From the NCBI RefSeq assembly GCF_023078495.1, contig NZ_CP095742.1, forward strand, positions 2,356,001 through 2,420,000: a stretch of DNA of 64,000 bases, given 5' to 3'. The notes under the pieces are model-generated. The model saw nothing but the letters and a program-made list of their open reading frames with translations. It made no database searches and was not told the origin of the DNA. This document shows, piece after piece, positions 20,238 to 50,799 of the stretch (positions are counted from its first letter, which is position 1; the number at the start of each line of letters is the position of its first letter). The DNA comes from Luteibacter aegosomatissinici (lineage in GTDB: Bacteria > Pseudomonadota > Gammaproteobacteria > Xanthomonadales > Rhodanobacteraceae). The position numbers and the translations under genes were made by a program.

Positions 20238-20249
20238 TGTCGTCGGCCA
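20238..20249 (+). repeat. Left terminal inverted repeat
   Basis: TGTCGTCGGCCA matches the right end perfectly in inverse orientation. It starts with TGT, as ends of Tn7/Tn5053/Mu-class elements do. A related copy GTCGTCGGTCA sits 39 bases inward at 20278-20288. Confidence 0.93.
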
Positions 20250-20840
20250 ATAACTGTGTCGCCTAGCCATTTACCTCGTCGTCGGTCAGTAATTCTATCG
20301 CCAGGCGCGTCGACTCCGCGCTAGGTGGTTGATTTTGCTCCGAGGGCTGGATTGATCGGGGCACACTTTTCGACGACACCGTTTCTGGCTAGGCCTTCAC
20401 CGACATTAACGATGTCGCGACGGCACGGCTAACGACACTGCTACCGGCCTGCACCTGAGGTATCCATCGACGGCTAGCATCGGCGACCAGCGTTTCTTGT
20501 TGTCGGCGACCCACCAACTGCGTCTGAGAGCGTGCCGCCGCCGATTTGCCCTGCCGACAACCGGTGGGACGCCCTCAGGCTAGGCACATTATTGGTGCGT
20601 GTCGGCGACCAGCATTCCCTGTCCCATGGCCAGCAAATCCTGTCACCTCGTGAAATCATGTCACGTTCTGGGCACTGCCGGCCGTAACTGGTTGTTATAA
20701 CTGCTCGTTGCTCGGCGGGCTAATCCATTTGGGTTGTGACATCATTTCCTATTCTTGTGATCCGCGCAGTAGGAAATTGAGTCACGTCGGCTAATCGCGT
20801 CGCCACCTTCACGGCTACCAGATCAGGAAATGTTGTCACG
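20240..20840. repeat. Array of degenerate ~20-bp repeats at the left transposon end
   Basis: Related copies follow the plan GRCCAG-N-AA-N3-TGTCRCC. Direct copies lie at about 20240-20264, 20279-20303, 20480-20499 and 20602-20621 (the last two 17/20 identical), and 20628-20647. An inverted copy is at 20371-20394. A sub-type AGGAAAT-N3-GTCACG lies at 20650, 20771, 20825 and inverted at 20735-20750. Such arrays bind TnsB/TniA in related elements. No gene is seen in 20250-21083. Confidence 0.6.
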
Positions 20841-21083
20841 CTGTCGATCGATGCTGCAGCCCTCCATCGCGAGCTATTGGTACTCCGCAAACCGCAATCC
20901 GCACCGGCCGGTCACCGACCAGTTGTGATTCACCATCGATGATGGCCGGTCAGCGTCGCGTGGTGAGTTTTGATCTTTCGCGCTCGCTGGCGATCCCGGA
21001 CGTCCAGCGATAGGCCGCAGTCGCAAGGAGGCAGGCAACTCCCGCCTCCCTGCTTTTCCGCCTCCACTGGCAATCGCCGGGGA

Positions 21084-22046
21084 TCAGGCCCCACGCTTAG
21101 CGCGCACCTTCTTTTTCGCGGCCGGCTTTGCCTGGCCGGGGGTGGCGCGGCGGCGCGGTGTGGCCGGCCTCTGCGCCGGGACGGTCGCTGCGGCTTTCGC
21201 GCGCGTGCGGACCTGGCGCACGAGTGCTTGCTGGGTGGTCAGGACGGCATCGGCGCGGGCCGCGGCTACCGCGGCTTCACGCTGGGCATCGATGACCGCC
21301 TGGCGCAGCGCGGCCTCGCGCCGGCGCGCTGCCTCGTCACGGGTCCGTTGCTCGCCTTGCGTTGCATCCCGCTGTTTTTGCACTGCGCGCAGCTCGGCGC
21401 GGATCCGGTCGACCTCCGCATGCGCTCGGTCTTCGACGGCGCGTACGTGCTCGGCAAGGCGCTGCCGTTCGGCCGCGTCCTCCGCGTCGCGCGTCCGGCT
21501 TCGTGCTGCCTGCGCCATCGCTTCCTGGTCGGCGCGGTGGACCCGCTCCTCGGCGGCATCGCGCTGGGCGCGAAGGTCGTTGAGCTGCGTCTGTTGCTGA
21601 TCGCACCATTGCTGCAGGTCGCGCAGGCGCTGCTCGGCGGACCGTTGGGCATGCGCGGCATGTTCTGCGGCGGTGAGCACCTCACGGACGGTGGCCTGGC
21701 GGGCCGCGTCAGCCTCGACGAGGGCCTCGCGCTCGGCGGCCAAGGTTTCACGGTCGGTGGCGAGCGCAGCGTGGGCCTCTTCGCGCGCGCTGCGTAGGGC
21801 GGCATCCCAGAGCTGCGCCGCCAGGTCGCCGATCGCGAAGGGTGCTGCCGGCAACGCCGCAGCCTGACGCTGCTGGCGCAGCCGCGAGCCCAGCCTGCCC
21901 CACCAACTGTCCAGGTGCCGAGTGACTGTGTTCGGCGAGCCGGATCCCAGATGCGCGCGAATGCGCTCGACTGTCGGTCGTTCGCCTGCTTCCACCAGCG
22001 CATCGGCGGCGCCGTGCACGTCGTTTTCTGTGATCCCGCGTGCCAT
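21084..22046 (-). CDS. KfrA_N-domain coiled-coil DNA-binding protein (TnpT-like)
   Basis: Start at ATG 22046 (MARGITENDVHGAADALVEA), with GGAG upstream. The 320-residue protein has an N-terminal KfrA-type DNA-binding domain (GERPTVERIRAHLGSGSPNT, residues about 20-45), a long Ala/Arg/Glu coiled coil (about 75-270) and a basic Lys/Arg tail. It is divergent from a tyrosine recombinase, with a palindromic site between. The same arrangement is known for TnpT and TnpS of Tn4651-type transposons, where TnpT assists cointegrate resolution. Plasmid KfrA is the alternative reading, but the pairing favours TnpT. Confidence 0.8.
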   Translation of the reverse strand: MARGITENDVHGAADALVEAGERPTVERIRAHLGSGSPNTVTRHLDSWWGRLGSRLRQQRQAAALPAAPFAIGDLAAQLWDAALRSAREEAHAALATDRETLAAEREALVEADAARQATVREVLTAAEHAAHAQRSAEQRLRDLQQWCDQQQTQLNDLRAQRDAAEERVHRADQEAMAQAARSRTRDAEDAAERQRLAEHVRAVEDRAHAEVDRIRAELRAVQKQRDATQGEQRTRDEAARRREAALRQAVIDAQREAAVAAARADAVLTTQQALVRQVRTRAKAAATVPAQRPATPRRRATPGQAKPAAKKKVRAKRGA

Positions 22047-22092
22047 CGCTATGTCTCCGTGGTTGAGCACCCTGCCCTTTGATTCTCTACTC

Positions 22093-22113
22093 GCGATAAG
22101 TGATGATTATCGC
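22093..22113. other. Candidate recombination core site (rst/res-like)
   Basis: GCGATAA-GTGATGA-TTATCGC is a perfect 7-bp inverted repeat with a 7-bp spacer. It lies between the divergent KfrA-like and tyrosine recombinase genes. The size and spacing fit a tyrosine recombinase core, two arms bound by monomers and a 6-8 bp crossover region, as in the rst site between tnpT and tnpS. Confidence 0.6.
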
Positions 22114-22150
22114 TAGTATCAGCTCTATATCGTAATTCACATTACATATT

Positions 22151-23230
22151 ATGAAGCATAAACGCACCTCGACTGATCTCTCCGCACCTGCCTCCAGCTT
22201 GGTCTTGCCGGAACAGCTGGCCCAGCAAGCGGCGGACGCCGTGCGTGAACTGTTGGCCGAAGCCGCCGCGGCCAACACCACCCGCAGCTATGCCGCCGCC
22301 CTGCGCTACTGGGCCGGCTGGCACCAGGCGCGGTTTGGTATGGAGCTGACGTTGCCGGTGACCGAGACCGTGGTGATCCAGTTCCTGGTCGACCATATCC
22401 AGCGGAAAAGCAAAGCTGGCCTGGTCAGCGAGCTGCCGCCGGCGGTCGACCAAGTACTGGTCGCGTCCGGCCTCAAGGCGAAGCTCGGGCCGCCCAAGCT
22501 CGCCACCGTGACCCAACGCGTGGCCGTGCTGTCGACGGCACACAAGCTCAAACGACTGACCAACCCGTGCGAGCTAGCCACCGTCCGCACGCTGCTCAGT
22601 CGCGCCCGGCGTGCCGCGGTGAAACGCGGTGAGCGGCCGACCAAGAAGACTGCGATCACGCGCCCGGAGCTCGAGGCCATGCTGGCCACATGTGACGACT
22701 CGCTGGAAGGGCTGCGCGACCGCGCCTTACTCTGCTTCGGCTTTGCCAGCGGTGGCCGTCGACGCAGCGAGATCGCAGCAGCCGACCTGTGCGACCTGCG
22801 CAAGACCGGTGACGACAGCTACATCTATCGGTTGGAGTTTTCGAAGACGCAGCAGGCCGGCGTGAAGGTAGATTCGACGCCTGACAAGCCGATCCTAGGA
22901 CGCAGCGCTCAGGCGCTCGCGGCGTGGCTCGAAGCGGCAGGCATACGAGAGGGGGCAATTTTTCGGCGCATATGGAAGAATCGGATCGGCCCTGCCCTGC
23001 TACCCGGCTCGGTGGCCTCAGTCGTCAAACGCCGAGCCATTATGGCGGGGCTAAATGGGGATTTCGGTGCCCATAGTCTCCGCTCAGGCTTTGTCACCGA
23101 GGCGGGCAAGCAAGGCGTACCGTTGCCAGCGGTGATGGCGATGACGGAGCACCGCTCCGTCGCTAGCGTGATTGGATACTTTCAGGCCGGTCAGGTGGAA
23201 GAGAATCCCGCGGCGCGGCTTCTTAAGTGA
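22151..23230 (+). CDS. Tyrosine recombinase/integrase (TnpS-like cointegrate resolvase)
   Basis: The 359-residue protein has a SAM-like core-binding N-terminal domain (ANTTRSYAAALRYWAGWHQA) and a full catalytic domain: R204 in GGRRRSE, K232 in SKTQQAG, H308 and R311 in GAHSLRSGF, H334 in TEHRSV and nucleophile Y343 in IGYFQ. All six key residues are present, so it should be active. The divergent KfrA-like partner and intervening dyad point to resolving transposon cointegrates rather than phage integration. Confidence 0.88.
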   Translation: MKHKRTSTDLSAPASSLVLPEQLAQQAADAVRELLAEAAAANTTRSYAAALRYWAGWHQARFGMELTLPVTETVVIQFLVDHIQRKSKAGLVSELPPAVDQVLVASGLKAKLGPPKLATVTQRVAVLSTAHKLKRLTNPCELATVRTLLSRARRAAVKRGERPTKKTAITRPELEAMLATCDDSLEGLRDRALLCFGFASGGRRRSEIAAADLCDLRKTGDDSYIYRLEFSKTQQAGVKVDSTPDKPILGRSAQALAAWLEAAGIREGAIFRRIWKNRIGPALLPGSVASVVKRRAIMAGLNGDFGAHSLRSGFVTEAGKQGVPLPAVMAMTEHRSVASVIGYFQAGQVEENPAARLLK

Positions 23231-23266: not shown

Positions 23267-24049
23267 TCAATGAAGCGGGTGCCCTTCCTCCTCGTCGATG
23301 CCTGGCGTTAAGTCAATCTCTCGGAAATTCGTTGCGCCTAAAAAGCCCATCTTCTTCGCAAAGAGATTTGCCAGTCGATCGTCCGCGGTGGCAAAGAAGA
23401 TTTGCCGGGCTCCGGTCTCCGCGATGTCCGCCAAGTAGTCGAGTAGCGCTAAGGAATTTAGATCGTCAATGTGCGCAACTGGATCATCGATTAGCATGAT
23501 CGGTGGGCCATCTGCTTGGGTGCGCGTCACGAACAGGTAGCACAAGCAGTCTAAAAATTCTCCATTGGCGCCTGGTGCTGGCCAGTTAATCACCACTCGG
23601 ACGCGACCTTCGAGAGCCTCTAGCCTCGCGCGCAGGTCAGGGGCGGAAATGCTTTCGCACGCAATAGCCCACAACTTGCCCTCTGCTGGAACAGTCCCGG
23701 ATCCAATAGCATCGAAAAGTGCGGTCCAAGGACAGGAGTATTCGGGACAAGCCACCAAGTCCGAACCGAGAGCAACGGCTCGTCCCAGAAAGCCACTCAT
23801 TTGCATCCTTAGCAAGTCACGATCGAGGACGCTGACGCTCCTGTCGGTGGCGACGATGGCGCCTTGCGGCTGAAAGAGAAGTGCCCTAATGAAGCCTGGA
23901 TCGCGAGAAAGAAACGGCATTTCGGGCGGCCGCAACCCCTCTTGCGCCAACCGAATGGATACGTCCACAAGCTGTGTCACAGCCCCTCCCCTACTATCCC
24001 TTGACGCGGGGCAACCCTCAGTCGCCCCTTCCTTAGCCAAGGATGCCAT
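23267..24049 (-). pseudogene. Chimeric remnant: nitrilase-like segment joined to an SMC-type ATPase C-terminus
   Basis: The 260-residue open frame looks like two unrelated pieces. Residues about 25-175 (SGFLGRAVALGSDLV, ACPEYSCPW, VVINWPAPG, NGEFLDCLCYLFVTRTQADG) resemble the carbon-nitrogen-hydrolase-like domain found with some defence reverse transcriptases. Residues about 176-245 (PIMLIDDPVAHIDDLNSLAL, then RQIFFATADDRL) are the Walker B/D-loop end of an SMC/RecN-like ATPase with no Walker A. A deletion fusing two old genes is the simplest reading. An intact novel fusion is less likely. Confidence 0.5.
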
Positions 24050-24409
24050 ATGCGCTGAGAAAAGGTATTACCGAGTTGATCGATAATCAAATGGAAGTCA
24101 CGGCTCTTCCTCGCTTTGGTCTACCTGGCGATGCCAGAAAATCCAAGGCATTGTTTCGGCTTTCATCCACGTTAGTTAGCTTCATAACCAGTCAAATCTC
24201 AGTTCAAAGCTTGCGCTGATCTACCCGCGATAACACGGGCTTATCACCCTGCTTTCTGCTCGCCGAGATGTCGGGGGCGCCGGGAGATGACGGTAGCACT
24301 CCGGTGGCGTACGGCAGGCAGCGAGCGGCTGGCCGCCGTCAGGTTCAGATGGCCACGGAGAGGCGGGCTATGCGCCACTACCCACGGCCTGAACACAAAC
24401 CGCCCCGAT
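24050..24409. other. Intergenic region, no gene seen
   Basis: This 360-base gap between the chimeric remnant and the tandem hydrolase gene has no convincing frame. It may be a scar of the rearrangement that made the remnant. Confidence 0.4.
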
Positions 24410-26446
24410 TCACGGAGACGCAGGCGCTCGTCGCCCGGCATCACGCTCCCCACCCGCCTCCGAAGCCATGCGCAACACCTGATCAATTGCATCAATCACG
24501 ATCTCAGGCCGGTCGTAGTTAATGAGATGTCCGGCGCGCGGGACAATTTCATTGAACCCACGAGTCGACATGGCCGCGACGTCGTTGTGCAGCTGCTCGA
24601 CGGTGGCGGTGCGCTGGTCCTGCTGCAGCTGGGTGACCCCCGCCGCGGGTTTGAAGGGAGCGTGGGTCAGGTAGATGAGCGGCAGGTCGCCGACATCGCT
24701 TCGCGTTGCGCGTGCTTCATCGGCGCTTTCACCCCGGAAGGCCTGAGTCTCCGACCTGACGGCCAGCTGGTACTTCGCCTTTGCTCCATACGCCAGTCGC
24801 GCATCGTTGATGGCCTGGCTGAAGCGTGGATCGGGTTCGCCAACACAACGCGCATAGACCGGGGACGTCTTCGGAATCTCTCCGTCACGCAGCGCGTCCA
24901 CGCATGTCGTGTCATGGATGTCGTCGTCCCAATGAGCCTTCGCCTCGGGTAGCGCGATCGCTTTAAGGCGGGAGGACTGGTCTTCGTGTGTTCCATCGAC
25001 GATGACCAGTCCGACGACGTCGTCGCGAAAGCGGCCGGTAAATACACGCGTCGATAGCGCCGCATCGGAGTGCGCCACCAGCACATAAGGCGGCGCCACA
25101 TGGGCCGCTTGCAAGGCCATGTGCAGGTCGTCAGCTTCGTTAGCGGCTGTGCCGGGCCGTACGGCAGCGTCGCTGAATCCGAGCCCGGCACGATCGAACG
25201 CACAAGTGGCATGCGTCTCGCTGATGGCCGGCTGGACGAGCCCCCAGGCAACGGTGCTATCAGCCGCACCTGCGGCAAACACGACCGTAGGCGCGCCCGC
25301 CCCCCGACAGTACAGATTGATACGCCGGCCACCACCGACATCCACGAGGCGTGCCGGGCGGGTATAGGCAGCATCAGTCACGATTGGGTGACCTTGCAGC
25401 GCCTTCACCGCGGGCGCCGGCTCGGCCGCCATCGCTATCGCCTGATGGATGGCCTCGATGACGATATCCGGCCGGTCGTAGTTCATCGCGTGCTTGCTTC
25501 GCGGAACGATCCAGTTCACGCCCCGGGTCGACATGGCCGCGACCTCGTTGTGGTATTGCTCCCAATCCATGTTGCGCCGGTCCTGCATGGCCTGTGGAAA
25601 GCCGTTGCGGGCGGGCGACTGCGAGCGCGTCAGCATGATGATGGGCATGTCGCCGAAATCCCGGCGCGTCGCCCGTGCTTCGTCTGCACTGACGGTACCG
25701 AAGTTCTCCATCTCCGACGTGATGGCCTTTTGCGACTTCAGTGAGGCCATGGCGGCGGAAGTCGCATCGGTAATGGCCTGGCTGACACCGGGATACATGA
25801 TCCCGACGCAAGGCTCGAACAGGGGTGAATCCTTCGGAATACTGCCCGACTTCGCAGCTTCCACGCAGTTGGGTGCCGGCGCTGCGGACGGCCCTGCCAG
25901 GGACGGCATCTCCTTGACCTCAAGCGCCATTCGGGCCTTCCCCCCGCTGACCTGCTCCTCGTAAGAACCATCGACGATCACCATGCCGACAACCTCCGAA
26001 CGGTAGCGGTCTGCGAAGATCCGAACCGCGAGCCCCCCGGCCGAATGTCCCACGAGCACATAAGGCGGCTCGATGTGAGCCGCCTGGAGTGCCTTGTGAA
26101 TATCATCGACGTCGTTTCCAGCGGTACCTGGCCGCACAGCGGCATCGCTGAATCCGAGCCCAGCGCGGTCGTATGAACAGGTCATGTGGGCGTTGCTGAT
26201 TTCCGGCTGGATCAGTGCCCACGCGATGGTTGTATCGTAAGCGCCGGAATCGAAGATGACGGCGGGTGAGCCCGCTCCACGGCAGTACAAGTTGAGACGT
26301 CTGCCGCCAATATCGACCAACCGGGCCGCTCCGAGGTAGACCGGATCGGTCACCACGGGTTGGGTGGCGGGCTCGCCTCCCCATGCCACCGGCGTGCTCG
26401 CAAGACAGCCAACCGCCACGAGGGTGGTGAGCACTTCCTTCAACAT
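24410..26446 (-). CDS. Exported tandem (two-domain) alpha/beta hydrolase
   Basis: Start at ATG 26446 (MLKEVLTTLVAVGCLASTPV), with AGGGGAT upstream, gives a signal peptide and a 678-residue product. Two full hydrolase domains lie in tandem (about 35-335 and 350-660), roughly half identical. Domain 1 has an intact nucleophile elbow GHSAGG. Domain 2 has AHSDAA, keeping Ser but losing both flanking glycines. Each has YDRAGLGFSDAAVRPGT-like and MSTRG...H motifs, with final His in SKHAMNYDRP or AGHLINYDRP. The downstream single-domain paralogue suggests repeated duplication. Confidence 0.85.
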   Translation of the reverse strand: MLKEVLTTLVAVGCLASTPVAWGGEPATQPVVTDPVYLGAARLVDIGGRRLNLYCRGAGSPAVIFDSGAYDTTIAWALIQPEISNAHMTCSYDRAGLGFSDAAVRPGTAGNDVDDIHKALQAAHIEPPYVLVGHSAGGLAVRIFADRYRSEVVGMVIVDGSYEEQVSGGKARMALEVKEMPSLAGPSAAPAPNCVEAAKSGSIPKDSPLFEPCVGIMYPGVSQAITDATSAAMASLKSQKAITSEMENFGTVSADEARATRRDFGDMPIIMLTRSQSPARNGFPQAMQDRRNMDWEQYHNEVAAMSTRGVNWIVPRSKHAMNYDRPDIVIEAIHQAIAMAAEPAPAVKALQGHPIVTDAAYTRPARLVDVGGGRRINLYCRGAGAPTVVFAAGAADSTVAWGLVQPAISETHATCAFDRAGLGFSDAAVRPGTAANEADDLHMALQAAHVAPPYVLVAHSDAALSTRVFTGRFRDDVVGLVIVDGTHEDQSSRLKAIALPEAKAHWDDDIHDTTCVDALRDGEIPKTSPVYARCVGEPDPRFSQAINDARLAYGAKAKYQLAVRSETQAFRGESADEARATRSDVGDLPLIYLTHAPFKPAAGVTQLQQDQRTATVEQLHNDVAAMSTRGFNEIVPRAGHLINYDRPEIVIDAIDQVLRMASEAGGERDAGRRAPASP

Positions 26447-26691
26447 GGGTGGATCCCCTGAGTTGCGCGGTTCCAGGCTGCCGGCCACGGCAGGCTGGGT
26501 GGTGCGAACGATGAAGTTAAAGGATGGGCTCGACGAGCGTCAACTCGAGGCGAGCGACCGTCGGGGACTCACCAAGCCTTGGGTCGGGTGACCCAGAAGA
26601 AAGTTGGCGTAAGATTTGGAAACTAGGGGCGCGAGGTGCCCAAATTCGCCGAAATACAGCCAGAGATCCGGGCAAATACGGGCACCTCTTG

Positions 26692-27744
26692 CTACTGGCC
26701 GACATGGCTAACTACGTCTTCTTCGCGGGCGATTGCGAGCGCCATACGAATGGCATCAATCACGATCTCTGGGCGGTCGAACGGAATCAGGTGGCCGCTG
26801 CGAGGCACGATCATGTTGACGCCATGCGTGGACATCGCCGCCACCTTGTTGTGGAGCTCTTCCAGAAGGAGGGTGCGTTTATCCTGATCGGCCTGCGTGC
26901 GGCCGTTACGAGGCGGTTGCGGCGACTGCGTAAGCATGATGATGGGCATGTTGCCGAAATCGTGTCGGGTGGCACGCACCTGCGCAATGCTGGCTCCGTA
27001 GAAGGCGCGATACTCCGCAGTGACAGCGGCCTGATACTTGAGCTTGGCACCATACGCCAGCTCCGCATCGTTGATAGCCCGGCTCAATCGGGGGTCGGGC
27101 TCGCCGACGCAGCGCTTGTAGACAGGCGAATCCTTAGGGATTTCGCCGCCGCTGGCTGCGTCCACGCACGTCGTATCCTTCAGGTCGTCGTCCCAATGAG
27201 CCTGGGCTTCCGGCGTGGCGAGCGCCTTGTACCGTTCCGACATGTCTTCATGCGAGCCATCGACAATGACCATGCCGACAACCTCATCACGGTAACGATC
27301 CGCGAAGACCCTCACCGCCAAACCGGCTGCCGAATGGCCGACGAGGAGGTAGGGCGGCGCGACATGAAGCGACATCAAGGCCTTGTGGATATCGTCAACA
27401 TCGTTGGACGCGTCGCCTGGGCGCGTCGGCGCATCGCTGAACCCGAGGCCTGCGCGGTCATAGGAGCATGTTGTGTTGCTCTTGCTGATCTCTGGTTGCA
27501 CTAAGGCCCAGGACACAGACGAGTCGTTGAGGCCCGCATCGAAAATGACCGCCGGTGAGCCCGTGCCCCGACAATACACATTGAGGCGCCGCCCACCTCC
27601 AACGTCCACAAGCCGGACCGGTGCGGCATATGCCGGATCGGTGATCGTTGGCGCAGTCATCGCGGCTTCGGCGGCAACCGCCGCTGCGGCTGCAAGCGTG
27701 CCCGCGACCAGGATGGCAGCCGAGGCAATTTTCACCAGGTTCAT
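26692..27744 (-). CDS. Exported alpha/beta hydrolase, paralogue of the tandem gene
   Basis: The 350-residue product has a signal peptide (MNLVKIASAAILVAGTLAAA) and one hydrolase domain with elbow GHSAAG, YDRAGLGFSDAPTRPGD, DGSHED and SGHLIPFDRP (catalytic His). It resembles domain 2 of the adjacent gene most in its middle (HWDDD, TTCVDA, CVGEPDPR). It is likely a periplasmic esterase or lactonase; the substrate is unknown. Confidence 0.87.
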   Translation of the reverse strand: MNLVKIASAAILVAGTLAAAAAVAAEAAMTAPTITDPAYAAPVRLVDVGGGRRLNVYCRGTGSPAVIFDAGLNDSSVSWALVQPEISKSNTTCSYDRAGLGFSDAPTRPGDASNDVDDIHKALMSLHVAPPYLLVGHSAAGLAVRVFADRYRDEVVGMVIVDGSHEDMSERYKALATPEAQAHWDDDLKDTTCVDAASGGEIPKDSPVYKRCVGEPDPRLSRAINDAELAYGAKLKYQAAVTAEYRAFYGASIAQVRATRHDFGNMPIIMLTQSPQPPRNGRTQADQDKRTLLLEELHNKVAAMSTHGVNMIVPRSGHLIPFDRPEIVIDAIRMALAIAREEDVVSHVGQ

Positions 27745-28329
27745 TCTTCAGTCCCTTTGATCCGCTCTGCGCGATCCGTTCGAGGGGTGAGCGTGCCAGA
27801 CCGATTGCCACCATCCCTGCGACGACGGCCTCGCTGCGATTCCGTGTGTGCCGCAGGAAAGAGTCGCTCGGCAAGACTACGCGTAATACCGTGATGCTCG
27901 CATCACTTCGCGGTCAATGCACGCGAGTACCGGATGGCCTGACATGGGTACGCAGTCGTTGGAGCGGACTCGCGAGTGGAGCGCGCTCGTACCCTCGATA
28001 ACCATCCCTAATCAATCTAAACCGGCACTACTCTTCCAAAAGTAGTGCCGCTCTCTAAGCATCCTGCAGCGCCGGCTTTTACACCTCGGTACGTCCAACC
28101 CTTTGGATTGATTGAAGCCAATGTCATACACGTCTGTATCTACTCTTTCACTGGCTGGTTAGCCACGAGCTGAACGTCGCCCTCACTCTGGTATGGGGGC
28201 AGTGATCATGGGTCAATCGAGCAGGGCGGGACCACTCCATCCTGAAAACATGAAGTGTGAGGCGCCGGTGCCGGGGATGAACAGGAGCGTGAACCGCTTC
28301 CACCTTCACTCGCCGATGCTTCAGAACAT
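27745..28329. other. Intergenic region with a hairpin and a dispersed repeat
   Basis: No gene is seen in 585 bases. It holds a perfect 10-bp stem (CGGCACTACT/AGTAGTGCCG, 8-base loop, 28023-28050) without a T-run, a REP-like GGAGCGCGCTCG stretch near 27980, and the first copy of a 65-bp repeat (28207-28271). Confidence 0.5.
28207..28271 (+). repeat. 65-bp dispersed repeat, copy 1
   Basis: Starts CATGGGTCAATCG and ends TGTGAGGCGCCGGTGC. It is about three-quarters identical over its length to 38023-38086, both inside the transposon cargo and both intergenic. Confidence 0.6.
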
Positions 28330-28950: not shown

Positions 28951-28985
28951 TCCTGCGGAGAAATGAGATTAGCAAGCGGTGATCG

Positions 28986-37621: not shown

Positions 37622-37635
37622 GCCAGCCATACTAG

Positions 37636-42950: not shown

Positions 42951-43067
42951 GGGGGCCTCGCAGGGCGACGGCGACACATCGGCGCCACGCCAGATGGGAA
43001 AGGATGGCGCGACGGTAGGCTTCCCTTTGCGCGTTGGGTGTGAAGGAGCTGGCCGAAGGAGCACCCC

Positions 43068-43544
43068 ATGAGCGATGTATTGACCCTCTCCGCCCCTTTG
43101 TGGACGTTTCTGGTCCGCGGCTCCCTCACCTATCTCGGATTGCTGCTGCTCATGCGGTTGGCTGGCAAACGCAGCTTCGGCGAGCTGTCCGCGTTCGATG
43201 TGGTCGTCATCGCACTGGCCGGCGGCACGCTACGCACCGCCATCATTGGCGAGGACCAAGGGATGCTGGGCCCGTTTCTCGGCGTCGCAGGCATTCTTGT
43301 GACCGACAAAGCCATCGCCTGGGCGTCCGCCCGAGCGCCGTGGTTCAACCGGGTCATGGAAGGGTTTCCGACCCTGCTGGTGCGGGAGGGACAACGCGAC
43401 CGCGCCGCGATGCGCAGCCAAAGCCTGACCGATGCCGCCTTGGACCGAGCGCTACACGCAGCCGGCCTTGAGGACGAGCGGGAGGTGGTCATCGGGCGCC
43501 TTGAGCCCAACGGCAAAATCACTCTGGTGCGGCGCGCGCGCTGA
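43068..43544 (+). CDS. DUF421 (YetF/YcaP-like) membrane protein
   Basis: GGAG 7-10 bases upstream supports ATG 43068. The 158-residue protein has three N-terminal membrane helices with the family signature LLLMRLAGKRSFGELSAFDV. A cytoplasmic DUF421 domain follows (VMEGFPTLLVREGQRDRAAM, then RRAR end). Its function is unknown; it is often stress- or sporulation-associated. Confidence 0.92.
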   Translation: MSDVLTLSAPLWTFLVRGSLTYLGLLLLMRLAGKRSFGELSAFDVVVIALAGGTLRTAIIGEDQGMLGPFLGVAGILVTDKAIAWASARAPWFNRVMEGFPTLLVREGQRDRAAMRSQSLTDAALDRALHAAGLEDEREVVIGRLEPNGKITLVRRAR

Positions 43545-43546
43545 CG

Positions 43547-43804
43547 CTATCCGCGCAGGAAGCCCAGCAGCTCGTTCGCTTCCTCCTCCGTCACCGCATC
43601 GGCCTCGACCAAAAACACCACGCGACCTTGGGTGGTCAGGTCCTTCAAGACGGTAGGCCCCTCGTGCCAGCCGTCGCCTTCCACGTGTCCGCCCATGGTC
43701 AAGAATCCGCTTTCGACCGAGCCCACTGTAAAACCGCCGGCCCGCTCAATGAGCGCCATGCGCAACTCATCATGGAACCACAGTACTTTTCCAAGCATGC
43801 GCAC
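43547..43804 (-). CDS. Small hypothetical protein
   Basis: The 85-residue product (MRMLGKVLWFHDELRMALIE) is one compact beta-rich domain with an acidic helix at the end (ADAVTEEEANELLGFLRG). It is convergent with DUF421, two bases away. No family recognised. Confidence 0.6.
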   Translation of the reverse strand: MRMLGKVLWFHDELRMALIERAGGFTVGSVESGFLTMGGHVEGDGWHEGPTVLKDLTTQGRVVFLVEADAVTEEEANELLGFLRG

Positions 43805-43918
43805 GAACCCATCGGTGCCGGTGGGGAATCCGGCGTCCCCCTCTGTTTCGGCGCGGGCTGTCCAACATTGAATCGACCGTCCTCACATTGGTGAAGACCC
43901 TATCGGCGGGCGGTGGCG

Positions 43919-44302
43919 TTACGCCCGAGCTGGACCCGTGCTCAACTCCTGCAGGGCCGCGACGACCGCGCCACCGCCCATCGGCTTTTCGAGCCGAGGC
44001 ACATGCGCATATGCGGCAGGGATGCGCTCGACACTCAAGGCGGTCACGAACAGGCAAGGTACGCCCCGTTGTTCGAGGGCGTCAAAAATGCCGTAAGAAG
44101 TCTGCCCATGCACATCGATATCCAGCAACGCGCCGTCTAAATCGCCCTCGCCCTTCAACGCCGCTGCGGCGTCCACCAAATTGGACACCGGGCCGCACAC
44201 TTCCGCTCCTTGGGACACCAAGAGGTCTGCCAGTGCGCTGGCAATCAAATAGTCGTCTTCGAGGACCAAATAGCGGCGACCGACCAAAGCTGGGGTCTGC
44301 AT
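43919..44302 (-). CDS. Single-domain response regulator
   Basis: Start at ATG 44302 (MQTPALVGRRYLVLEDDYLI), with AGGAG nine bases upstream. The 127-residue receiver has the acidic pair (LEDD), phospho-acceptor Asp in ALLDIDVHG, Thr/Ser in LFVTALS and Lys in RLEKPMGG. No output domain. This layout matches FixJ/CheY-like regulators of alphaproteobacterial-type stress signalling. No histidine kinase is encoded beside it. Confidence 0.88.
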   Translation of the reverse strand: MQTPALVGRRYLVLEDDYLIASALADLLVSQGAEVCGPVSNLVDAAAALKGEGDLDGALLDIDVHGQTSYGIFDALEQRGVPCLFVTALSVERIPAAYAHVPRLEKPMGGGAVVAALQELSTGPARA

Positions 44303-44432
44303 CGGATATCGCTCCTGAGATGAGCGGATTACCAGTCTGTCCCACTGAGCCGCTTGGCGTGTAAGCATGGGGTGATGGGGCAGCACAAACTGCGCTAAAT
44401 GACCGGTTTTGTCATATTTATGGGGGACACAC

Positions 44433-44729
44433 ATGCGCCACACTGCACGCATGGCTGAAAACGATGCCCACATAACCGTGTTCACCCTCGAGGAGGAAGG
44501 GGATGCCCTGCGCGAGGCGCTGCTGAGCCACGACCTCACAGAGGTCCGGTTTCGAGCTCGAGAAATGGCGCGCCTGGCCCTCGTCCTTGGTCTGACATCC
44601 GTTCAACGGGCAGCGACACAGGTCATCGACCAGATGGGTCCCGAAGGTTCTTCACCGCAGCGGGGATACGGAGCCGCCATCTTCGCGCTTTCCGATGCAC
44701 TCCACACGGTGGAACGACCCCAGCCCTGA
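44433..44729 (+). CDS. Small helical protein, unknown
   Basis: ATG 44433 follows GGGGGA. The 98-residue helical product (MAENDAHITVFTLEEEGDAL from residue 7) has the size and helix pattern of an Hpt-like protein, but no His is placed as a phosphorylation site. It is divergent from the response regulator. Confidence 0.55.
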   Translation: MRHTARMAENDAHITVFTLEEEGDALREALLSHDLTEVRFRAREMARLALVLGLTSVQRAATQVIDQMGPEGSSPQRGYGAAIFALSDALHTVERPQP

Positions 44730-44823
44730 TGGCCACGGCATACGTTCGCGTCACACGGTAGCGCAGTACGCTGCGTGCTGAAGCATAGGTCCATCCACTC
44801 GCTTCGCTGCAGGAGAATCTGCC

Positions 44824-45330
44824 ATGCCCGAGAAAAAGACCATCGCGAAAGCGGCCAAAGACAAGCGCGAAGGGAAGTCGGCCTCGACACAAGCGGGTGA
44901 GTTCGTGCACGAACAAATCGAACACATCCGTAAAGGAAAGCACGGCGCTCGCTCGACGAAACAAGCCATCGCCATAGGCCTATCCGAGGCGCGCCGGGCT
45001 GGTGTTATAGCCAGACCATCCAAGTCGGCGAGCAAGTCGACCAAGAAAAAGGCGGCCCAGGACACTGCTGCTGCCAAGAAACGCTCATCGGGAACCGCCG
45101 CCAAGAAGTCGACCGCACGCAAACGCGCCACGACGAAAGCGCTCAAACGCGAAGGCACGGCTGCCGCATCCAAGCGCGCATTGTCGGCTCATGCAAAAAA
45201 GAGTGCGGCCAAGCGCACATCGGCAAGTAAGTCGGCCGCGGCAAAAAAAGCCGCAAAGACGAAGGGGCCCGCGGTACGGAAGGCTGCGGCAAAGAAAGCT
45301 GCGCGGACTCGCGCCAAAAAAACTTCCTAG
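44824..45330 (+). CDS. DUF6496 domain plus histone-H1-like lysine/alanine tail
   Basis: GGAG 8-11 bases upstream supports ATG 44824. Residues about 20-60 (GEFVHEQIEHIRKGKHGARS, KQAIAIGLSEARRAG) form the DUF6496 domain. Residues 65-168 are an AlgP/histone-H1-like tail of Lys-Lys and Ala-Ala repeats that probably binds DNA. It may compact or protect DNA under stress. Confidence 0.85.
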   Translation: MPEKKTIAKAAKDKREGKSASTQAGEFVHEQIEHIRKGKHGARSTKQAIAIGLSEARRAGVIARPSKSASKSTKKKAAQDTAAAKKRSSGTAAKKSTARKRATTKALKREGTAAASKRALSAHAKKSAAKRTSASKSAAAKKAAKTKGPAVRKAAAKKAARTRAKKTS

Positions 45331-45531: not shown

Positions 45532-46527
45532 CTAACCGCGCGAACGTGTACGAGCACGCTCGACCCAAGCCAGCCGGTCACGTTTAAAGGCTTCGCGGAG
45601 TCGGCGAAGTCGTCGACCAGGGCGACGCTTAACCTTACGATACGAGATCATCGGATCGATCCTCTGCGTTATTTGCGTGACTCCTCGAGGTGCAAGTTCG
45701 GCTGGGAAATCGGGCAATGTGAGCCAAGCGGTAATCCAAATGGCTCCTCGCCGCCACGAGGGCCTTCCCGCGTGGCGGACGACCTCCCAGGGGCTGCCTC
45801 TCCATGGCGGGGCATCGCCGCGGCGTGTCTCAAACAGCGACGCCGGCCCAAGAGCTGAATGAAGCAGTTGCCCCATTGTTGGGGAAGGAACGCCGTCCAA
45901 GTGGCCGAGGCAATGACATAGCAGCGCGCGCGCCTGATAGCCGTTGAGCCGCCAATTGCTTGGCCAGGGAAGCCCGCCAAACAAATGCCACTCCATCGTT
46001 GCTGCAAAGTCATTAAGCAGGTCCATCAACCATCGGGCATCATCCGTCGAGTGCAAATGACGGCGTTCAAACCACATCCTTTGCATTGGAAAGAGTGGCG
46101 CTGCAGCCCACGCGAGGGGATCGTTGTGCCGTGTACATGACAACGAGAACACCCGAGCCCATGCCCGACGGAAGTAGCGCGGCCGTCCAGCTGCGTCGTC
46201 CTCAAGCCAGCATGCCGGACAGAAGGCACGCCGCTCGCCTGGCGCGAGCGTGTCCGGCTCATCCGCAACGTGGGCAGCCCGCATTTGGCTAGCCTTGACC
46301 TGCATTAGGCGCGCCAACCTGATGATATCCCCGAGCCTAAGAGGCGTTTCCTCCGTTCCTCGTGAGCCGAGCACATCGGTAAACCATCCGGTGCGTTGGA
46401 GCACAATGCCGCCATAAACGTGAGAGGCCCGCTCGATGATCGAGTCAATCGTCTCTTGCGGCATGAGTGACTTGATCCACCAGCGCTCGCGCGGCCCGCC
46501 ATAGCGGTATTGCAGCCAGGCCGTCAT
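45532..46527 (-). CDS. tniQ: TniQ target-selection protein
   Basis: The 331-residue protein has an N-terminal TniQ domain (SLMPQETIDSIIERASHVYG) and a zinc-finger motif FCPACWLEDD...FSLSCTRHNDPL (C103, C106, about C131, H134). TniQ/TnsD proteins choose or recruit the target. It is last in the operon, and its ATG overlaps the tniB stop. Confidence 0.92.
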   Translation of the reverse strand: MTAWLQYRYGGPRERWWIKSLMPQETIDSIIERASHVYGGIVLQRTGWFTDVLGSRGTEETPLRLGDIIRLARLMQVKASQMRAAHVADEPDTLAPGERRAFCPACWLEDDAAGRPRYFRRAWARVFSLSCTRHNDPLAWAAAPLFPMQRMWFERRHLHSTDDARWLMDLLNDFAATMEWHLFGGLPWPSNWRLNGYQARALLCHCLGHLDGVPSPTMGQLLHSALGPASLFETRRGDAPPWRGSPWEVVRHAGRPSWRRGAIWITAWLTLPDFPAELAPRGVTQITQRIDPMISYRKVKRRPGRRLRRLREAFKRDRLAWVERARTRSRG

Positions 46528-47459
46528 GCCGCTTCCTCCTGTTGCGCAGGATCTCCCCGCTGCGATGCGGGCGTTCGGCCACTGAAATAGGCAGGGATTT
46601 CGAACTCCGCGCGTTCCAGGTAGCGTTCATCGATTCGTCTCACATCGTCCTCGATCGCCAGCGCAGCGGCGAAGACAACCCGCTCGACGATGATGTCCAG
46701 CCGACCGCCGCCGGCTGTGACCAGAAGGCGTTGAATGGCTGGCATCGACAGGCGCGACCGCTCTGGTAGCGGCAGGCACGTCTCTAGTTCATCGAGAAAA
46801 TTCGCAAGCAGGGGGCCAGTACGCCACGGCGGCAGCTTGATGCTTCGAAATCGCGTCACTAGATGCTCTTCACGCATCATCGCCTGTTGCGCATGTTCGG
46901 TCCCCAAGGCCAGGATCGAAATGCCCGCTTCGTTCATCAGATACTTGATCCCTTCAAACGTATTCTCCATTTGACGCGCTGATCGTTTCAGAATGTCCTG
47001 AATTTCGTCAATGATCAGCATCCGCACTTGGGCGGCGCGTAGCAGCTCGACCACGAGCTCTTCACGCTCATCGAGCGAGTAACCTGCAACGTGGGGACAA
47101 CCGAGGGCGCGCAAGGTGCGTGAAAAAACCTTATTAGCCTCGCGCGCATTCGTCATGGTGATTCGAATCACTGGCCTCATGGCGTCAACGCCCTCGCTGT
47201 TGCCCACCTCCGGATACCGGCGAAGGATCGCGTTGGCTAGCATGGTCTTGCCAGAACCACCAGCGCCCGAGACCACCGCGCCGCGTGCGCGCACGCGCCC
47301 CTTGGAGCGTACAAGCATGTCAGTGACTTTGTAGATCGCCTGGATCTGTTCGTGCTCGATGAATCGGTCGCGACACGTCCAGTCGCTGCGCTGAGGTACG
47401 GGCATGGCCATGGCCGCCAAGGCCATCGCATTTAAGTGAGGATATAGGGTGGTCATCAC
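46524..47459 (-). CDS. tniB: TniB AAA+ transposition ATPase
   Basis: The 311-residue AAA+ protein has Walker A GAGGSGKTM (65-73), Walker B MLIIDEIQDI (about 147) and sensor-1 ALGTEHA. The middle (ANKVFSRTLRALGCPH, SLDEREELVVELL) is typical of TniB/TnsC. It links target choice by TniQ to the transposase TniA. ATGA overlaps couple it to both neighbours. Confidence 0.95.
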   Translation of the reverse strand: MMTTLYPHLNAMALAAMAMPVPQRSDWTCRDRFIEHEQIQAIYKVTDMLVRSKGRVRARGAVVSGAGGSGKTMLANAILRRYPEVGNSEGVDAMRPVIRITMTNAREANKVFSRTLRALGCPHVAGYSLDEREELVVELLRAAQVRMLIIDEIQDILKRSARQMENTFEGIKYLMNEAGISILALGTEHAQQAMMREEHLVTRFRSIKLPPWRTGPLLANFLDELETCLPLPERSRLSMPAIQRLLVTAGGGRLDIIVERVVFAAALAIEDDVRRIDERYLERAEFEIPAYFSGRTPASQRGDPAQQEEAA

Positions 47460-49336
47460 AGCTCCTCCGTACGGACGCTCGCGCGGTTCGGCACGACGAA
47501 AGGTTCGTCATCCGAGACGCTCGGCGATGGTGTGGGAAGCGGCTTGCGTTTTCGGGCGCCGCGTCCAGGGACCGGGCGGCACTGGGCAGTCGAACGCGGC
47601 TGCTTGCGGGTTTCTGCCCGCGCGTTTAGTTCGATGCCGTCGCTTAACGCAAGTCCTTCGTCAAGCACGGCCTCCAGTTTCAGGGCTTCCTGGGCAGTGT
47701 GTGGTGCATGCATCTGGCCCAGCCCCCGACCGGCGACCGCCGGCGCTTTGACCATCACGCCGTCCTCGTCGCGAAACCAGATGCAGCCCGAGAAATGCGG
47801 ATGAAAGCGCACGAGCGCGACATGTTCGCGACCCACGCTACCTGTCATTGCAGGGTGCCAATAGCGGGTATGGTTATAGGTAATTCCGTCTCGTCGGATC
47901 AAGCGCTGCGTGACTGGTAAGAAGTCGAGACGGACTCGTTCTGGATCGGCCCAGACAGGAGGCGTGGTTAGTTCTCCCGATGGGAGGGTCCAAGCACGGT
48001 CCCAGGCGACTAGCGGAGCGATGCCCAGGGCGCGGTGGCGACGCACGTGGTAGTACTGGCATATCCGGACTACGAGCCATTCGCGTAGCTCGGCGAGTGT
48101 CATGGCTGCTCGCTTCTCGGCCTTGTAGTCGCCTCGTTGGTGCACGTCGCTGAATGTTGTGCCCGGCAGTCCATGCACCAAGCGCATGAGCGTCCCCATG
48201 ATTCGTTCAATATGGCCGCCGTAGCGAGGCTGGCCTGGCGGCCGAAACTCAAGGGCAATCCCGTGTTCTGCGCAGCCTTGTTCCAACGCGTGACTGCGAA
48301 AGTCCTTTCCGTTGTCTGTGAGGACCCGCCTGACCTTGCCATACATAGGCCAACGTCCACTGCGCTCACGGTTTTCGTCTGTCTTCGGCAGCATGGCGTG
48401 ACTCAAGCACATGGCCACTGAGACCACCGACGGTGCGTCCATTGTCAGATAAATTCCAAGTACACAGCGCGTCGCGATATCCATGGCAACTGTCAGCCAC
48501 GGTCTCCCCATAACTCGCTTTCGATCCGGGCTAACGATCATAACGTCGACCAACGTGTGATCGATCTGGCAAAGCTCGAGCGGCTCGACCACAAACAACT
48601 GGCCTGGGACGGGGTGCCATTTTTCTCGCGCCCGCTTCGCACCGATGACATCCTTGTCCATTAACTCGCCTGACTCAGCGACAATTCTCCGGGCAACGGT
48701 GCGGTAGCTTGGCACGGGCCATCGGAGTCGCCGGCAGAGCGAACGCGCGCGTTCGGCGACCTCTAATTGCGAGATATATTCACCGCGCCGGTAGCGACGT
48801 TCGATAACAAATTGGATCACTCGCTCAGCCCGAGGGTCGAGGAGAGTCGTGCCACGCTTGCGACCTCCTGGGTTGCGCAAAAGTGACGACGCGCGACGGC
48901 AGAGGAGATAGGTCTTTCTCCACCGCTGAATACACCGGTCGGACACCCCGTACTTTTTTGCGAGTGTATGCGTGACAGCACTCGGGAGTTTGCCCAGCTC
49001 GATATGTACTTCGAAATCCAGAGCCACCGCCCGGACCCGGGCCCACTCGTCGGGGTGAGCATCCACACGGTCAAACGCAAGCGCCGTGGGTTGTTCCGGC
49101 AGGGCGTGCAGCGCTTCGATCGGGACGTCTAGTTGCTCCGCAGTCGCCAACTCGGTGACGAGTACCCTGCCACGGTCACGCACGGCTACTACGCAGACGA
49201 CGGCATCGCCCCATCCCAATCGTGACCCGGGCGCTAGAGTGATGTGAGCCGGACCCGTCTGATTGCCGCGTGCGGCGGGCGCTAGAGGACTTGCCGCCGC
49301 ACGGCCGGGACGGACCTTGATCACGTTGCTTGTCAT
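47456..49336 (-). CDS. tniA: TniA DDE transposase
   Basis: Start at ATG 49336 (MTSNVIKVRPGRAAASPLAP), with GGGAG nine bases upstream; 626 residues. It has an N-terminal helix-turn-helix (KKYGVSDRCIQRWRKTYLL), an RNase H fold with D259 (CQIDHT), D341 (LTDNGKDF) and E377 (GHIERIMG), and a Mu-type C-terminal beta domain. It cuts and joins the ends of the element. First gene of the tniA-tniB-tniQ operon, facing inward from the right end. Confidence 0.95.
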   Translation of the reverse strand: MTSNVIKVRPGRAAASPLAPAARGNQTGPAHITLAPGSRLGWGDAVVCVVAVRDRGRVLVTELATAEQLDVPIEALHALPEQPTALAFDRVDAHPDEWARVRAVALDFEVHIELGKLPSAVTHTLAKKYGVSDRCIQRWRKTYLLCRRASSLLRNPGGRKRGTTLLDPRAERVIQFVIERRYRRGEYISQLEVAERARSLCRRLRWPVPSYRTVARRIVAESGELMDKDVIGAKRAREKWHPVPGQLFVVEPLELCQIDHTLVDVMIVSPDRKRVMGRPWLTVAMDIATRCVLGIYLTMDAPSVVSVAMCLSHAMLPKTDENRERSGRWPMYGKVRRVLTDNGKDFRSHALEQGCAEHGIALEFRPPGQPRYGGHIERIMGTLMRLVHGLPGTTFSDVHQRGDYKAEKRAAMTLAELREWLVVRICQYYHVRRHRALGIAPLVAWDRAWTLPSGELTTPPVWADPERVRLDFLPVTQRLIRRDGITYNHTRYWHPAMTGSVGREHVALVRFHPHFSGCIWFRDEDGVMVKAPAVAGRGLGQMHAPHTAQEALKLEAVLDEGLALSDGIELNARAETRKQPRSTAQCRPVPGRGARKRKPLPTPSPSVSDDEPFVVPNRASVRTEEL

Positions 49337-49504
49337 TTTCGTTCTCCCACAGCGGGCCGCCGGCGGCCCTTGAAGGGCGCCTAGCGACGCCCGGACAAAA
49401 GCTGCCCGTATGGGCCCCATTTGAGGGGCCAAAACGGGTTGCAACGGGAGGGAGGCTGTGCGAGGCTATCGATACGGGAGCCAATCCGTACGAAATAACC
49501 AAAA

Positions 49505-49534
49505 GGGGTCGCATGCCAGTGCGATCCTTTTTTG
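49505..49534 (+). terminator. Rho-independent terminator
   Basis: GGGTCGCA-TGCCAG-TGCGATCC followed by TTTTTT on the plus strand. It would block transcription from the tniA side toward the right end. Confidence 0.6.
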
Positions 49535-49832
49535 TTATCTACAGCCCCCCGGGGCTAGATAATGATCATGTGTGTCTCCGCCGACTGGGAGAGGTTCGCC
49601 TCAGGCGATGTAGTGCTTGCAACCTCTGTGGGAGAGCGCGCTTCGCCACCCAGTGGCTTGAGGTGCGGGCAACTGGGCGGAATACTTGCCTGGACGGGCA
49701 CACCGTCGATCTTCGCAGCGGCACGCGATTGCACGGCCGCATGTGAAGCAGGTGGTGCGGTGAGAGCCGAAGTGTACCCATAACGGCATGCAAGCAAATC
49801 CGTCCATGCTTAGTTAGCCTGCCAGACGAAAA

Positions 49833-49861
49833 AAAAGACCGCAATAAAAACGCGGTCTTTT
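49833..49861. terminator. Bidirectional rho-independent terminator
   Basis: AAAAGACCGC-AATAAAAAC-GCGGTCTTTT is a perfect stem with A- and T-runs on its two sides. It could stop read-through between the right-end gene and the tni operon. Confidence 0.75.
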
Positions 49862-49975
49862 GGGCGTATTTTTCACGATGGAACTAAAAAACATTAAGGG
49901 TTAGGCGTCACCCAAGTGCACATTCACGGCTAATGATCTAAAGATGATGCAAATATGATGCAGCGATGATGCATG

Positions 49976-50293
49976 TCATCTCGGTGACTCATCACGACGT
50001 TGCTCATGCCTCTCATCGATGATTATTTCTGGGGCGGAATGGGTATGGTGAATCTGCTTGAGGAGGAGCGCATAGAAGTAGAGCGCCTTCGCCACGGCCA
50101 CCTTATCGCCATTCACAACAGACCTTCGCTCGGCTCGGAGTTGCTCGTTAGCAAGCTGAAGCCCGTTAATGCGATGTTCGTTCGATATTTGCCTGGACCT
50201 TTCCAGACGAAGCTCGTGTTGCAGGCGAGCCGAACACTCAGCCATTACGCGTCGGGCTATTTCGCGGTCTATGTCGTTGTCTTGAAGTGCCAT
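49976..50293 (-). CDS. Small coiled-coil protein near the transposon end
   Basis: The 105-residue product (MALQDNDIDREIARRVMAEC) is a charged coiled coil (HELRLERSRQISNEHRINGL, AEQLRAERR-like) with a His-rich tail. Not recognised. Its place beside the tni end suggests a transposon-borne regulator or accessory factor. Confidence 0.5.
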   Translation of the reverse strand: MALQDNDIDREIARRVMAECSARLQHELRLERSRQISNEHRINGLQLANEQLRAERRSVVNGDKVAVAKALYFYALLLKQIHHTHSAPEIIIDERHEQRRDESPR

Positions 50294-50787
50294 CCGAGAC
50301 CCTGAGATCGCTATCGCAGGCCTAATCTTGCACCGGCTTCACAGGCACCACAACCGATCTGGACGTAATACTTGGCGATCGTCACATTCCCCGATGTACG
50401 TGCGCTACCGATGTCACGTGCTAGCGGCTGATTCCGGCATCAGCCGTCAAACTGACGCATAAACGCCCCTGAATGACGAAAAGCGCTACCGATTACACGC
50501 AAGTGCTAGGCGTCGATACTCGACATGTCCGGCTGGTGACGACGTCGGTTTTGCAACGGCGGCTCGCCGAAGCGGACGTCTTGGATTGAGCTCGGCGGAG
50601 ACTGGAGGATCGCCAATAACCCTGTCCGGACGAGCCGGTTGTGGTCACTATCGTTGTCGTTAAAAACTAGTTGGTCATTAACCCGGGCGTCAACTTCAAA
50701 CGACGCCAAGAAAAATGACCAAGGCTGTTTTCGTTCGGCTAGAAAAATCAGTGACCTACCAAAGCCGACGGATCACGTCAGTGGTCC
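50294..50787. repeat. Right transposon end with degenerate sub-terminal repeats
   Basis: No gene is seen. Two related copies with the core GCGCTACCGAT lie at 50402-50426 and 50483-50512, both ending GTGCTAG. CGCCAATAACCCTGTC (50611-50626) resembles GGCCAATAACTGTGTC at the left end. GGCTAGAAAAATCAGTGACC (50737-50756) resembles GGCCAGCAAATCCTGTCACC on the left. Confidence 0.5.
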
Positions 50788-50799
50788 TGGCCGACGACA
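50788..50799 (-). repeat. Right terminal inverted repeat
   Basis: TGGCCGACGACA is the exact reverse complement of the left end and is followed by the GAAAC duplication. Confidence 0.93.

What the first reader, a model, noticed from the sequence alone, without database searches (positions are those of the whole stretch)
20238..50799. Complete 30.6-kb tniABQ transposon delimited by TIRs and target duplication
A perfect 12-bp inverted repeat (TGTCGTCGGCCA) at 20238-20249 and 50788-50799 is flanked on both sides by GAAAC, a 5-bp duplication. With tniA, tniB and tniQ inside one end, this defines an intact Tn7/Tn5053-class element and its empty site. The cargo would otherwise be read as ordinary chromosome.
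Basis: partly seen in the sequence, partly recalled or inferred. Interest (0 to 1): 0.92.

Follow-up and report, generated by a model that had tools for sequence, protein, structure and literature searches.

The report
Transposon that inserts beside dif
This is a complete 30.6-kb bacterial jumping element that inserted about 50 bases from the chromosome's own separation site (dif), and several related elements in other bacteria sit the same way, so the family appears to home on that site.

Summary
A 12-bp perfect inverted repeat (20238-20249, 50788-50799) flanked by GAAAC delimits a 30,562-bp tniABQ transposon.

Where a strong TniA match and dif share a contig, they are within 86 kb of each other in 18 of 18 genomes (own included). 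Seven elements of 15-88 kb, the window's included, have both ends, matching 5-bp duplications and one end 27-57 bp from dif. Two of them (56 and 88 kb, over 99% identical where they align) sit in different genera; their compared flanks share one 24-bp match, at dif.

TniA and TniB are Tn402-like; TniQ is not detectably similar to Tn402's. No Tn402-type serine resolvase was found. Instead a divergent KfrA_N protein and tyrosine recombinase, laid out like a pair on pWW0, flank a conserved palindromic core.

Best reading: a 'dif hunter', working on dif as Tn5053 works on res sites, transposing replicatively and resolving cointegrates at its own core. That TniQ senses XerCD is inferred. I found no such report in the open-licence papers searched. 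New variant of a known kind.

The parts
20157..20184 (+). dif site (XerCD chromosome-dimer resolution site), intact, outside the element; the insertion landmark
   Evidence: 1 match in the window, 0 expected in shuffles; one match in the whole 4.99-Mb genome; pattern found in 97 of 149 genomes, once in each except G018 and G094 (two), with 0 matches to the reversed control in the genomes listed. The name and the E. coli consensus are recalled; two 11-bp arms and a 6-bp spacer agree with PMC10132070.
20233..20237 (.). target site duplication GAAAC, left copy
20238..20249 (+). left terminal inverted repeat TGTCGTCGGCCA
20278..20302 (+). internal copy of the end sequence, probable second TniA site (other copy 20239-20263)
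   Evidence: 80% identical over 25 nt; role inferred
21084..22070 (-). KfrA_N-domain protein, TnpT-like resolution helper
   Evidence: PF11740 E 2e-23; pWW0 counterpart also PF11740, 34% over 112 N-terminal residues, E 6e-9
22094..22112 (.). palindromic core CGATAAGTGATGATTATCG, rst-like recombination site between the divergent genes
   Evidence: Position; conserved with variation in an alignment of 29 of 34 loci (5 below 60% recombinase identity left out); two Xanthomonas plasmids identical up to and through it and diverging directly after
22151..23230 (+). tyrosine recombinase, TnpS-like
   Evidence: PF00589 E 4e-11; 26% to the pWW0 recombinase, E 1e-17; up to 91% in relatives; HxxR and C-terminal Tyr read from the translation
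23267..45173 (.). cargo: two alpha/beta hydrolases, FMN reductase, SDR, long catalase, DUF892, zinc alcohol dehydrogenase, DUF1989, YqcI/YcgG, pyridoxamine-oxidase-like, low-affinity iron permease, DUF421 and unknowns; looks like oxidative/general stress
   Evidence: function inferred from families
45532..46527 (-). tniQ, proposed target selector; C103, C106, C131, H134 invariant in the 9 aligned homologues
   Evidence: PF06527 E 2e-6; alignment; no similarity to Tn402 TniQ (E 1.4)
46524..47459 (-). tniB, AAA+ regulator with Walker A and B motifs
   Evidence: PF05621 E 4e-39; 25% to Tn402 TniB
47456..49444 (-). tniA, DDE transposase (D295, D377, E413)
   Evidence: 36% over 401 aa to Tn402 TniA; TnsB structures hit, best E 1e-36
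50788..50799 (-). right terminal inverted repeat
50800..50804 (.). target site duplication GAAAC, right copy

Best explanation
A complete tniABQ transposon of the Tn7/Tn5053 superfamily that takes the chromosomal dif site as its landing landmark. TniA (DDE transposase) joins the ends to target DNA with a 5-bp stagger; TniB (AAA+) and TniQ place the insertion about 27-57 bp from dif, on either side, leaving dif intact. As no TnsA was seen, transposition should be replicative and make cointegrates, which the tyrosine recombinase and its KfrA_N partner resolve at the palindromic core between their divergent genes. Shown by comparison: element boundaries, position beside dif in seven TSD-flanked elements, separate insertion of near-identical elements at two unrelated dif loci, and a natural crossover footprint at the core in two plasmids. 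Inferred: that TniQ is the selector, that it reads XerC/XerD bound to dif rather than dif DNA alone, and that this copy is active.
For: Ends and duplication. Dif 53 bp from the left end. TSD-flanked relatives at dif: G040 14.7 kb (28 bp from dif), G050 29.6 kb (32), G102 55.8 kb (57), G091 88.4 kb (28); G396 34.8 kb (42) and G402 73.4 kb (27) (lengths worked out by hand). G102 and G091 elements align at 99.4-99.8% over about 54.6 kb; right flanks of 7.0 and 5.3 kb show no match (blastn, tblastx) and left flanks of 2.1 kb each show one 24-bp match, at dif. TniA at E<=1e-40 with dif on the same contig: 18 of 18 within 86 kb. End motif: 14 hits within 80 bp outward of dif (12 genomes) against 3 elsewhere in 166 kb, 0.06 expected. 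Nine dif-linked TniAs plus one unplaced row form a supported clade. Larger TniQ proteins in G091, G042 and G100 lie 1.1-2.3 Mb from dif. No TnsA domain in the ORFs scanned, no Tn402-type serine resolvase, no spaced repeat array.
Against: Eleven of the 18 same-contig genomes gave no TSD-flanked element at dif: in G027, G067 and G316 an end lies by dif but the duplication was not matched; G340 has only a candidate pair; in G042, G060, G100, G298/G150, G406 and G425 no end of this family was recognised; the dif region of G337 was not fetched. The two ends of one element agree at only 7-10 of 12 positions outside the window; G402 is the weakest of the seven. In one search four further TSD matches were set aside because their far ends lacked the family pattern. 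TniAs of G042, G060 and G100 fall outside the main clade. In G319 (3 contigs) tniA and dif are on different contigs. Mannheimia, outside the clade, has tniA 1.1 Mb from dif. A larger, sub-cut-off TniQ in G031 lies 50 kb from dif, so large TniQs are not all remote. The end motif was written after looking at the flanks, and the 42 regions were partly chosen for recombinase genes near dif, so one search is partly circular. KfrA_N/recombinase genes also lie by dif in genomes with no TniA match. The TniQ model is poor (pLDDT 66) and matched nothing.
Confidence: 0.8

Rival explanations
1. Terminus hot spot: elements insert anywhere but survive mostly near the replication terminus, where islands are tolerated, so dif proximity is a by-product.
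For: The region is island-like: AbiE left and Gabija right of the element. G425 has tniA 64 kb from dif with no end recognised at dif.
Against: Ends lie 27-57 bp from a 28-bp site in seven TSD-flanked elements. Two near-identical elements in different genera share one short flank match, at dif. Survival in a region tens of kb wide does not give that precision.
Confidence: 0.12
2. The tyrosine recombinase/KfrA_N pair, not TniABQ, is the integrase that recognises dif, and tniABQ is cargo.
For: The pair lies beside dif in genomes without a TniA match, such as G021, G031 and G043; its core has dif-like half-sites (GATAA..TTATC against CATAA..TTATG).
Against: The boundaries are TGTC..GACA ends with 5-bp duplications, the mark of a DDE transposase; the recombinase core lies 1.9 kb inside the left end; the G040 element is TSD-flanked at dif although no KfrA_N homologue was detected there and its recombinase is only about 30% identical.
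Confidence: 0.06
3. A relic: correctly delimited and once dif-targeted, but no longer mobile, kept for its cargo. (Compatible with the best explanation of how it got there.)
For: The repeats inside the window's ends are less regular than those of G050 or G027; only one TniA match in the genome.
Against: The core genes are open with catalytic residues in place, the 12-bp repeat is perfect and the duplication unchanged.
Confidence: 0.3

Closest known systems
Tn5053/Tn402 'res site hunters' (passages of PMC7765201 and of the review PMC11406308; Tn402 genes from plasmid R751)
   Same: tniA-tniB-tniQ order, TniA 36% and TniB 25% identical, 5-bp duplications, insertion next to a recombinase site, replicative route inferred
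   Different: Target is dif, a tyrosine-recombinase site on the chromosome, not a serine-resolvase res site; TniQ shares no detectable similarity; tniR is replaced by a tyrosine recombinase with KfrA_N partner; the repeat differs from the Tn402 end
ISAjo2 group of the IS1202 family, 'dif site hunters' (PMC10132070: abstract, sections 4, 14 and 20, and searched passages)
   Same: Insertion beside dif or pdif, 5-bp duplication, TnsB-like DDE transposase, TGT..ACA ends
   Different: 1.5-kb IS with one gene, 5 bp from the XerC side in one orientation; here 15-88 kb, three-gene machinery, 27-57 bp away, on either side. The transposases were not compared: the record sought was not held
Tn4651 TnpS/TnpT/rst resolution system (passages of PMC7157771; pWW0 record)
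   Same: Divergent tyrosine recombinase and helper with a palindromic core between them; that the pWW0 pair is Tn4651 TnpS/TnpT is recalled
   Different: Attached to a Tn3-family transposase there, to TniABQ here; recombinases only 26% identical
Tn7-like elements with TnsD/TnsF/CRISPR targeting (passages of PMC8649781 and PMC10293859)
   Same: TnsB/TnsC/TniQ core; PMC8649781 reports tyrosine or serine resolvases in TnsA-less Tn5053-clade elements
   Different: The words dif, XerC and XerD do not occur in PMC10293859, nor dif and Xer as whole words in PMC8649781; no TnsA or Cas domain was seen in the ORFs scanned here

Membership tests
Tn5053/Tn402 family | tniA, tniB, tniQ in one operon with DDE, AAA+ and TniQ domains | tested here: met
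Tn5053/Tn402 family | 5-bp target duplication | tested here: met
   six further elements
Tn5053/Tn402 family | serine resolvase TniR and res site | tested here: not met
   No Tn402 TniR match in the window (best E 1.5), positive control found; res site itself not searched
Tn5053/Tn402 family | 25-bp terminal repeats of the TGTCATTTTCAGAAG type | tested here: not met
   Window repeat is TGTCGTCGGCCA, 12 bp; Tn402 ends read in R751
Tn5053/Tn402 family | insertion at res sites, guided by the target resolvase | tested here: not met
   Insertion is beside dif; the recombinase requirement could not be tested
Tn7-like superfamily (broad sense) | TnsB-like transposase, TnsC/TniB ATPase, TniQ-family protein, TGT..ACA ends | tested here: met
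CRISPR-associated transposon | CRISPR array or Cas effector | tested here: not met
   No spaced repeat family; no Cas domain among the element ORFs scanned; not every small ORF was scanned. TniQ's PADLOC hit is a type I-F-associated TniQ model, E 2e-9
TnpS/TnpT/rst system | divergent tyrosine recombinase and helper with a core site between them | tested here: met
TnpS/TnpT/rst system | resolves cointegrates at the core | not testable with these tools
   Indirect only: crossover footprint in two plasmids
dif-hunting elements | separate insertions at a narrow distance from dif | tested here: met
   Seven TSD-flanked elements at 27-57 bp

The most novel reading that the evidence does not exclude
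TniQ of this clade recognises XerC/XerD assembled on dif, perhaps the FtsK-activated complex at cell division, so a large replicative transposon uses the host's dimer-resolution machinery as both address and timing signal, giving it a safe, near-universal chromosomal attachment site; its own tyrosine-recombinase core then resolves cointegrates and lets co-resident elements at dif swap cargo.
Probability: 0.35. Interest if true: 0.88.

Novelty: new variant of a known kind. Interest (0 to 1): 0.74.

Why it matters
It extends 'recombination-site hunting' from plasmid res sites and single-gene ISs to large cargo-carrying TniABQ transposons aimed at the chromosome's own dif site. It offers a new TniQ specificity that can be tested in E. 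coli, may explain why islands collect at the terminus in these bacteria, and gives a simple rule (look 25-60 bp either side of dif) for finding more such elements.

Tried and rejected
TniQ structure: AlphaFold model of mean pLDDT 66; the PDB fold search gave nothing at E 0.001 or below, so no claim about how TniQ binds. Empty site with both native flanks: left-flank DNA matches G007 and G001 (AbiE genes) and G010 (the gene before them), but the right flank does not match substantially. The first TSD search, in the window and seven relatives, found only the window's pair and a spurious one in G060; anchoring the search at dif gave G040, G050, G091 and G102. That call listed eight TSD matches; four were set aside (one in G050, one in G102, two in G091) because their far ends lacked the family pattern. 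Its printed distances are 1-2 bp off through the script; the values in this report come. The other end was not found in G002, G005, G008, G021, G054 and G087 in the sequence held (one match in G087 set aside), G012 was fetched mostly on the wrong side, and no TniA was found in these seven; I take them as remnants. G149: ends found at both sides but the duplication does not match. G150 (apparently the same assembly as G298): no end pair. G340: pair with a matching duplication and 3 of 12 mismatches, not counted, because two such matches arose and its ends do not begin TGTCG. The single-protein scan of genome contigs found nothing; the alignment query worked, capped at 80 of 522 relatives. ISAjo2 transposase comparison not done. 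The distance test (Fisher p 6e-6) used 12 contigs, several too short to be informative. The TniA tree did not include G316, G340, G396, G402, G406 and G425.
Full report
Observation. The terminal repeats and the GAAAC duplication are exactly as described. The 30,562-bp unit carries tniA, tniB and tniQ inside its right end and cargo of mostly stress-type enzymes. At its left end a KfrA_N protein and a tyrosine recombinase are transcribed divergently.

Where it sits. A DNA search with the left flank gave an unexpected set of short hits in many relatives: a 28-bp dif site at 20157-20184. It occurs once in the window and once in the 4.99-Mb genome; the pattern was found in 97 of 149 genomes (own included), once in each except G018 and G094, and never with the reversed control in the genomes listed. 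The left terminal repeat begins 53 bp beyond dif, on the XerD side.

Relatives. With the window TniA at E<=1e-40 I have 44 genomes: 43 of 398, plus G042. Dif and tniA are on one contig in 18, on different contigs in 16, and no dif was found in 10, two of them single-contig genomes (G209, G253). In all 18 the distance is 11-86 kb; five are single-contig genomes (G000, G042, G402, G406, G425), and G091 and G316 have contigs of 6.0 and 3.3 Mb. One of the 18 (G337) rests on a broken TniA fragment, and G298 appears to be the same assembly as G150. G319, with three contigs, has tniA on an 826-kb contig and dif on a 3.1-Mb one.

Ends at dif. Six further elements have both ends and a matching 5-bp duplication: G040 ACGGT, 14,653 bp; G050 ATGCG, 29,643 bp; G102 AATCG, 55,827 bp; G091 GAATG, 88,437 bp; G396 CCAAC, 34,777 bp; G402 GGATG, 73,408 bp (the last two lengths worked out by hand). 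Their two ends agree at 7 (G040), 10 (G050), 8 (G102, G091, G396) and 9 (G402) of the outer 12 positions; G402 is the weakest because its right end lacks the inner pattern. One end of each is 27-57 bp from dif, on the XerD side except in G040. In G027, G067, G316 and G149 an end also lies about 28-40 bp from dif but the duplication was not matched. G087, without a TniA match, has end-like sequences on both sides of dif. A motif for the ends, written after seeing these flanks, was hit 14 times (12 genomes; two hits in G087 are neighbouring repeats of one end) within 80 bp outward of dif in 42 regions, and 3 times elsewhere in 166 kb. The 42 regions are part of the 97 genomes with dif and many were chosen because recombinase genes lay nearby.

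Natural experiment. The G102 and G091 elements align at 99.4-99.8% over about 54.6 kb, yet have different duplications and different dif distances. Right flanks of 7.0 and 5.3 kb show no match by blastn or tblastx; left flanks of 2.1 kb each share one 24-bp match, at the dif site; comparing left with right flank crosswise gave only a marginal tblastx hit (30% over 40 residues, E 9e-4). G102 is a metagenome bin, judging by its contig length. Two separate insertions with dif as the one shared flank sequence argue for targeting, not mere tolerance.

Machinery. TniA is 36% identical to Tn402 TniA over 401 aa and TniB 25%, while TniQ shows nothing significant. This fits TniQ as the part that changed target, but is not proof. 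No TnsA domain appeared in the 40 element ORFs scanned, which are not all of its ORFs, and no Tn402-type resolvase is present, so replicative transposition is inferred.

Resolution module. The pWW0 pair (genes that I recall as TnpT/TnpS of Tn4651; passages of PMC7157771 describe the system) has the same layout and domains. The region between the genes carries a palindromic core conserved, with variation, in an alignment of 29 of 34 loci. In two Xanthomonas plasmids all that was held to the left (7,943 bp) and the 19-bp core are identical, and the sequence diverges directly after it: a crossover footprint. That the recombinase is better conserved (up to 91%) than its partner (up to 51%) may reflect such exchange or faster divergence of the partner's C-terminal part.

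Literature. PMC8649781 (passages) already reports tyrosine resolvases in TnsA-less Tn5053-clade elements, so that part is not new. ISAjo2-type ISs are described as dif site hunters (PMC10132070). Searches for tniQ with 'dif site' (one paper, terms in unrelated passages), tniB with dif and XerD (none), 'dif site' with Tn402 and target (none) and 'site hunter' with dif (none) found no TniABQ element at dif; searches matched many papers, of which only the best were listed and I looked into a few. The library holds open-licence papers only, so an earlier report elsewhere is possible.

Host. Relatives named through contig lengths (Dyella lutea, Oleiagrimonas citrea, Rhodanobacter) place the window in Lysobacterales; the species was not determined.

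Noticed in passing
51714-55258: Gabija defence pair just outside the right end: GajB 51714-53528 (PADLOC E 5e-159) and GajA 53450-55258 (E 1.7e-215).
   Followed up: partly
18989-20111: AbiEi/AbiEii-type toxin-antitoxin pair ending 45 bp before dif.
   Followed up: no
L342 (G406, genome coordinates 2250036-2250065): A Tn402-type end, TGTCATTTTCAGAAG, 27 bp from the XerC side of dif in a single-contig genome, with a TniA 15 kb away; the other end was not found. Tn402-type elements may also hit dif.
   Followed up: partly
L111 and L112, core near 11943 and 7943: Xanthomonas plasmids with the identical KfrA_N gene but different recombinase and neighbouring genes, joined exactly at the core: apparent cargo exchange by site-specific recombination.
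   Followed up: yes
L031 (G027, genome coordinates 238257-238287): Right end of one element lies 7 bp from the left end of another that has its own KfrA_N gene: two elements nearly head to tail beside dif.
   Followed up: partly
L193 (G087), both sides of dif: End-like sequences flank dif on both sides, as if two elements had inserted around one dif site.
   Followed up: partly
L304 (G012, genome coordinates 296549-298636): A catalase 84% identical to the window's cargo catalase lies 8-10 kb from dif in a relative with an end-like sequence at dif but no TniA match.
   Followed up: no
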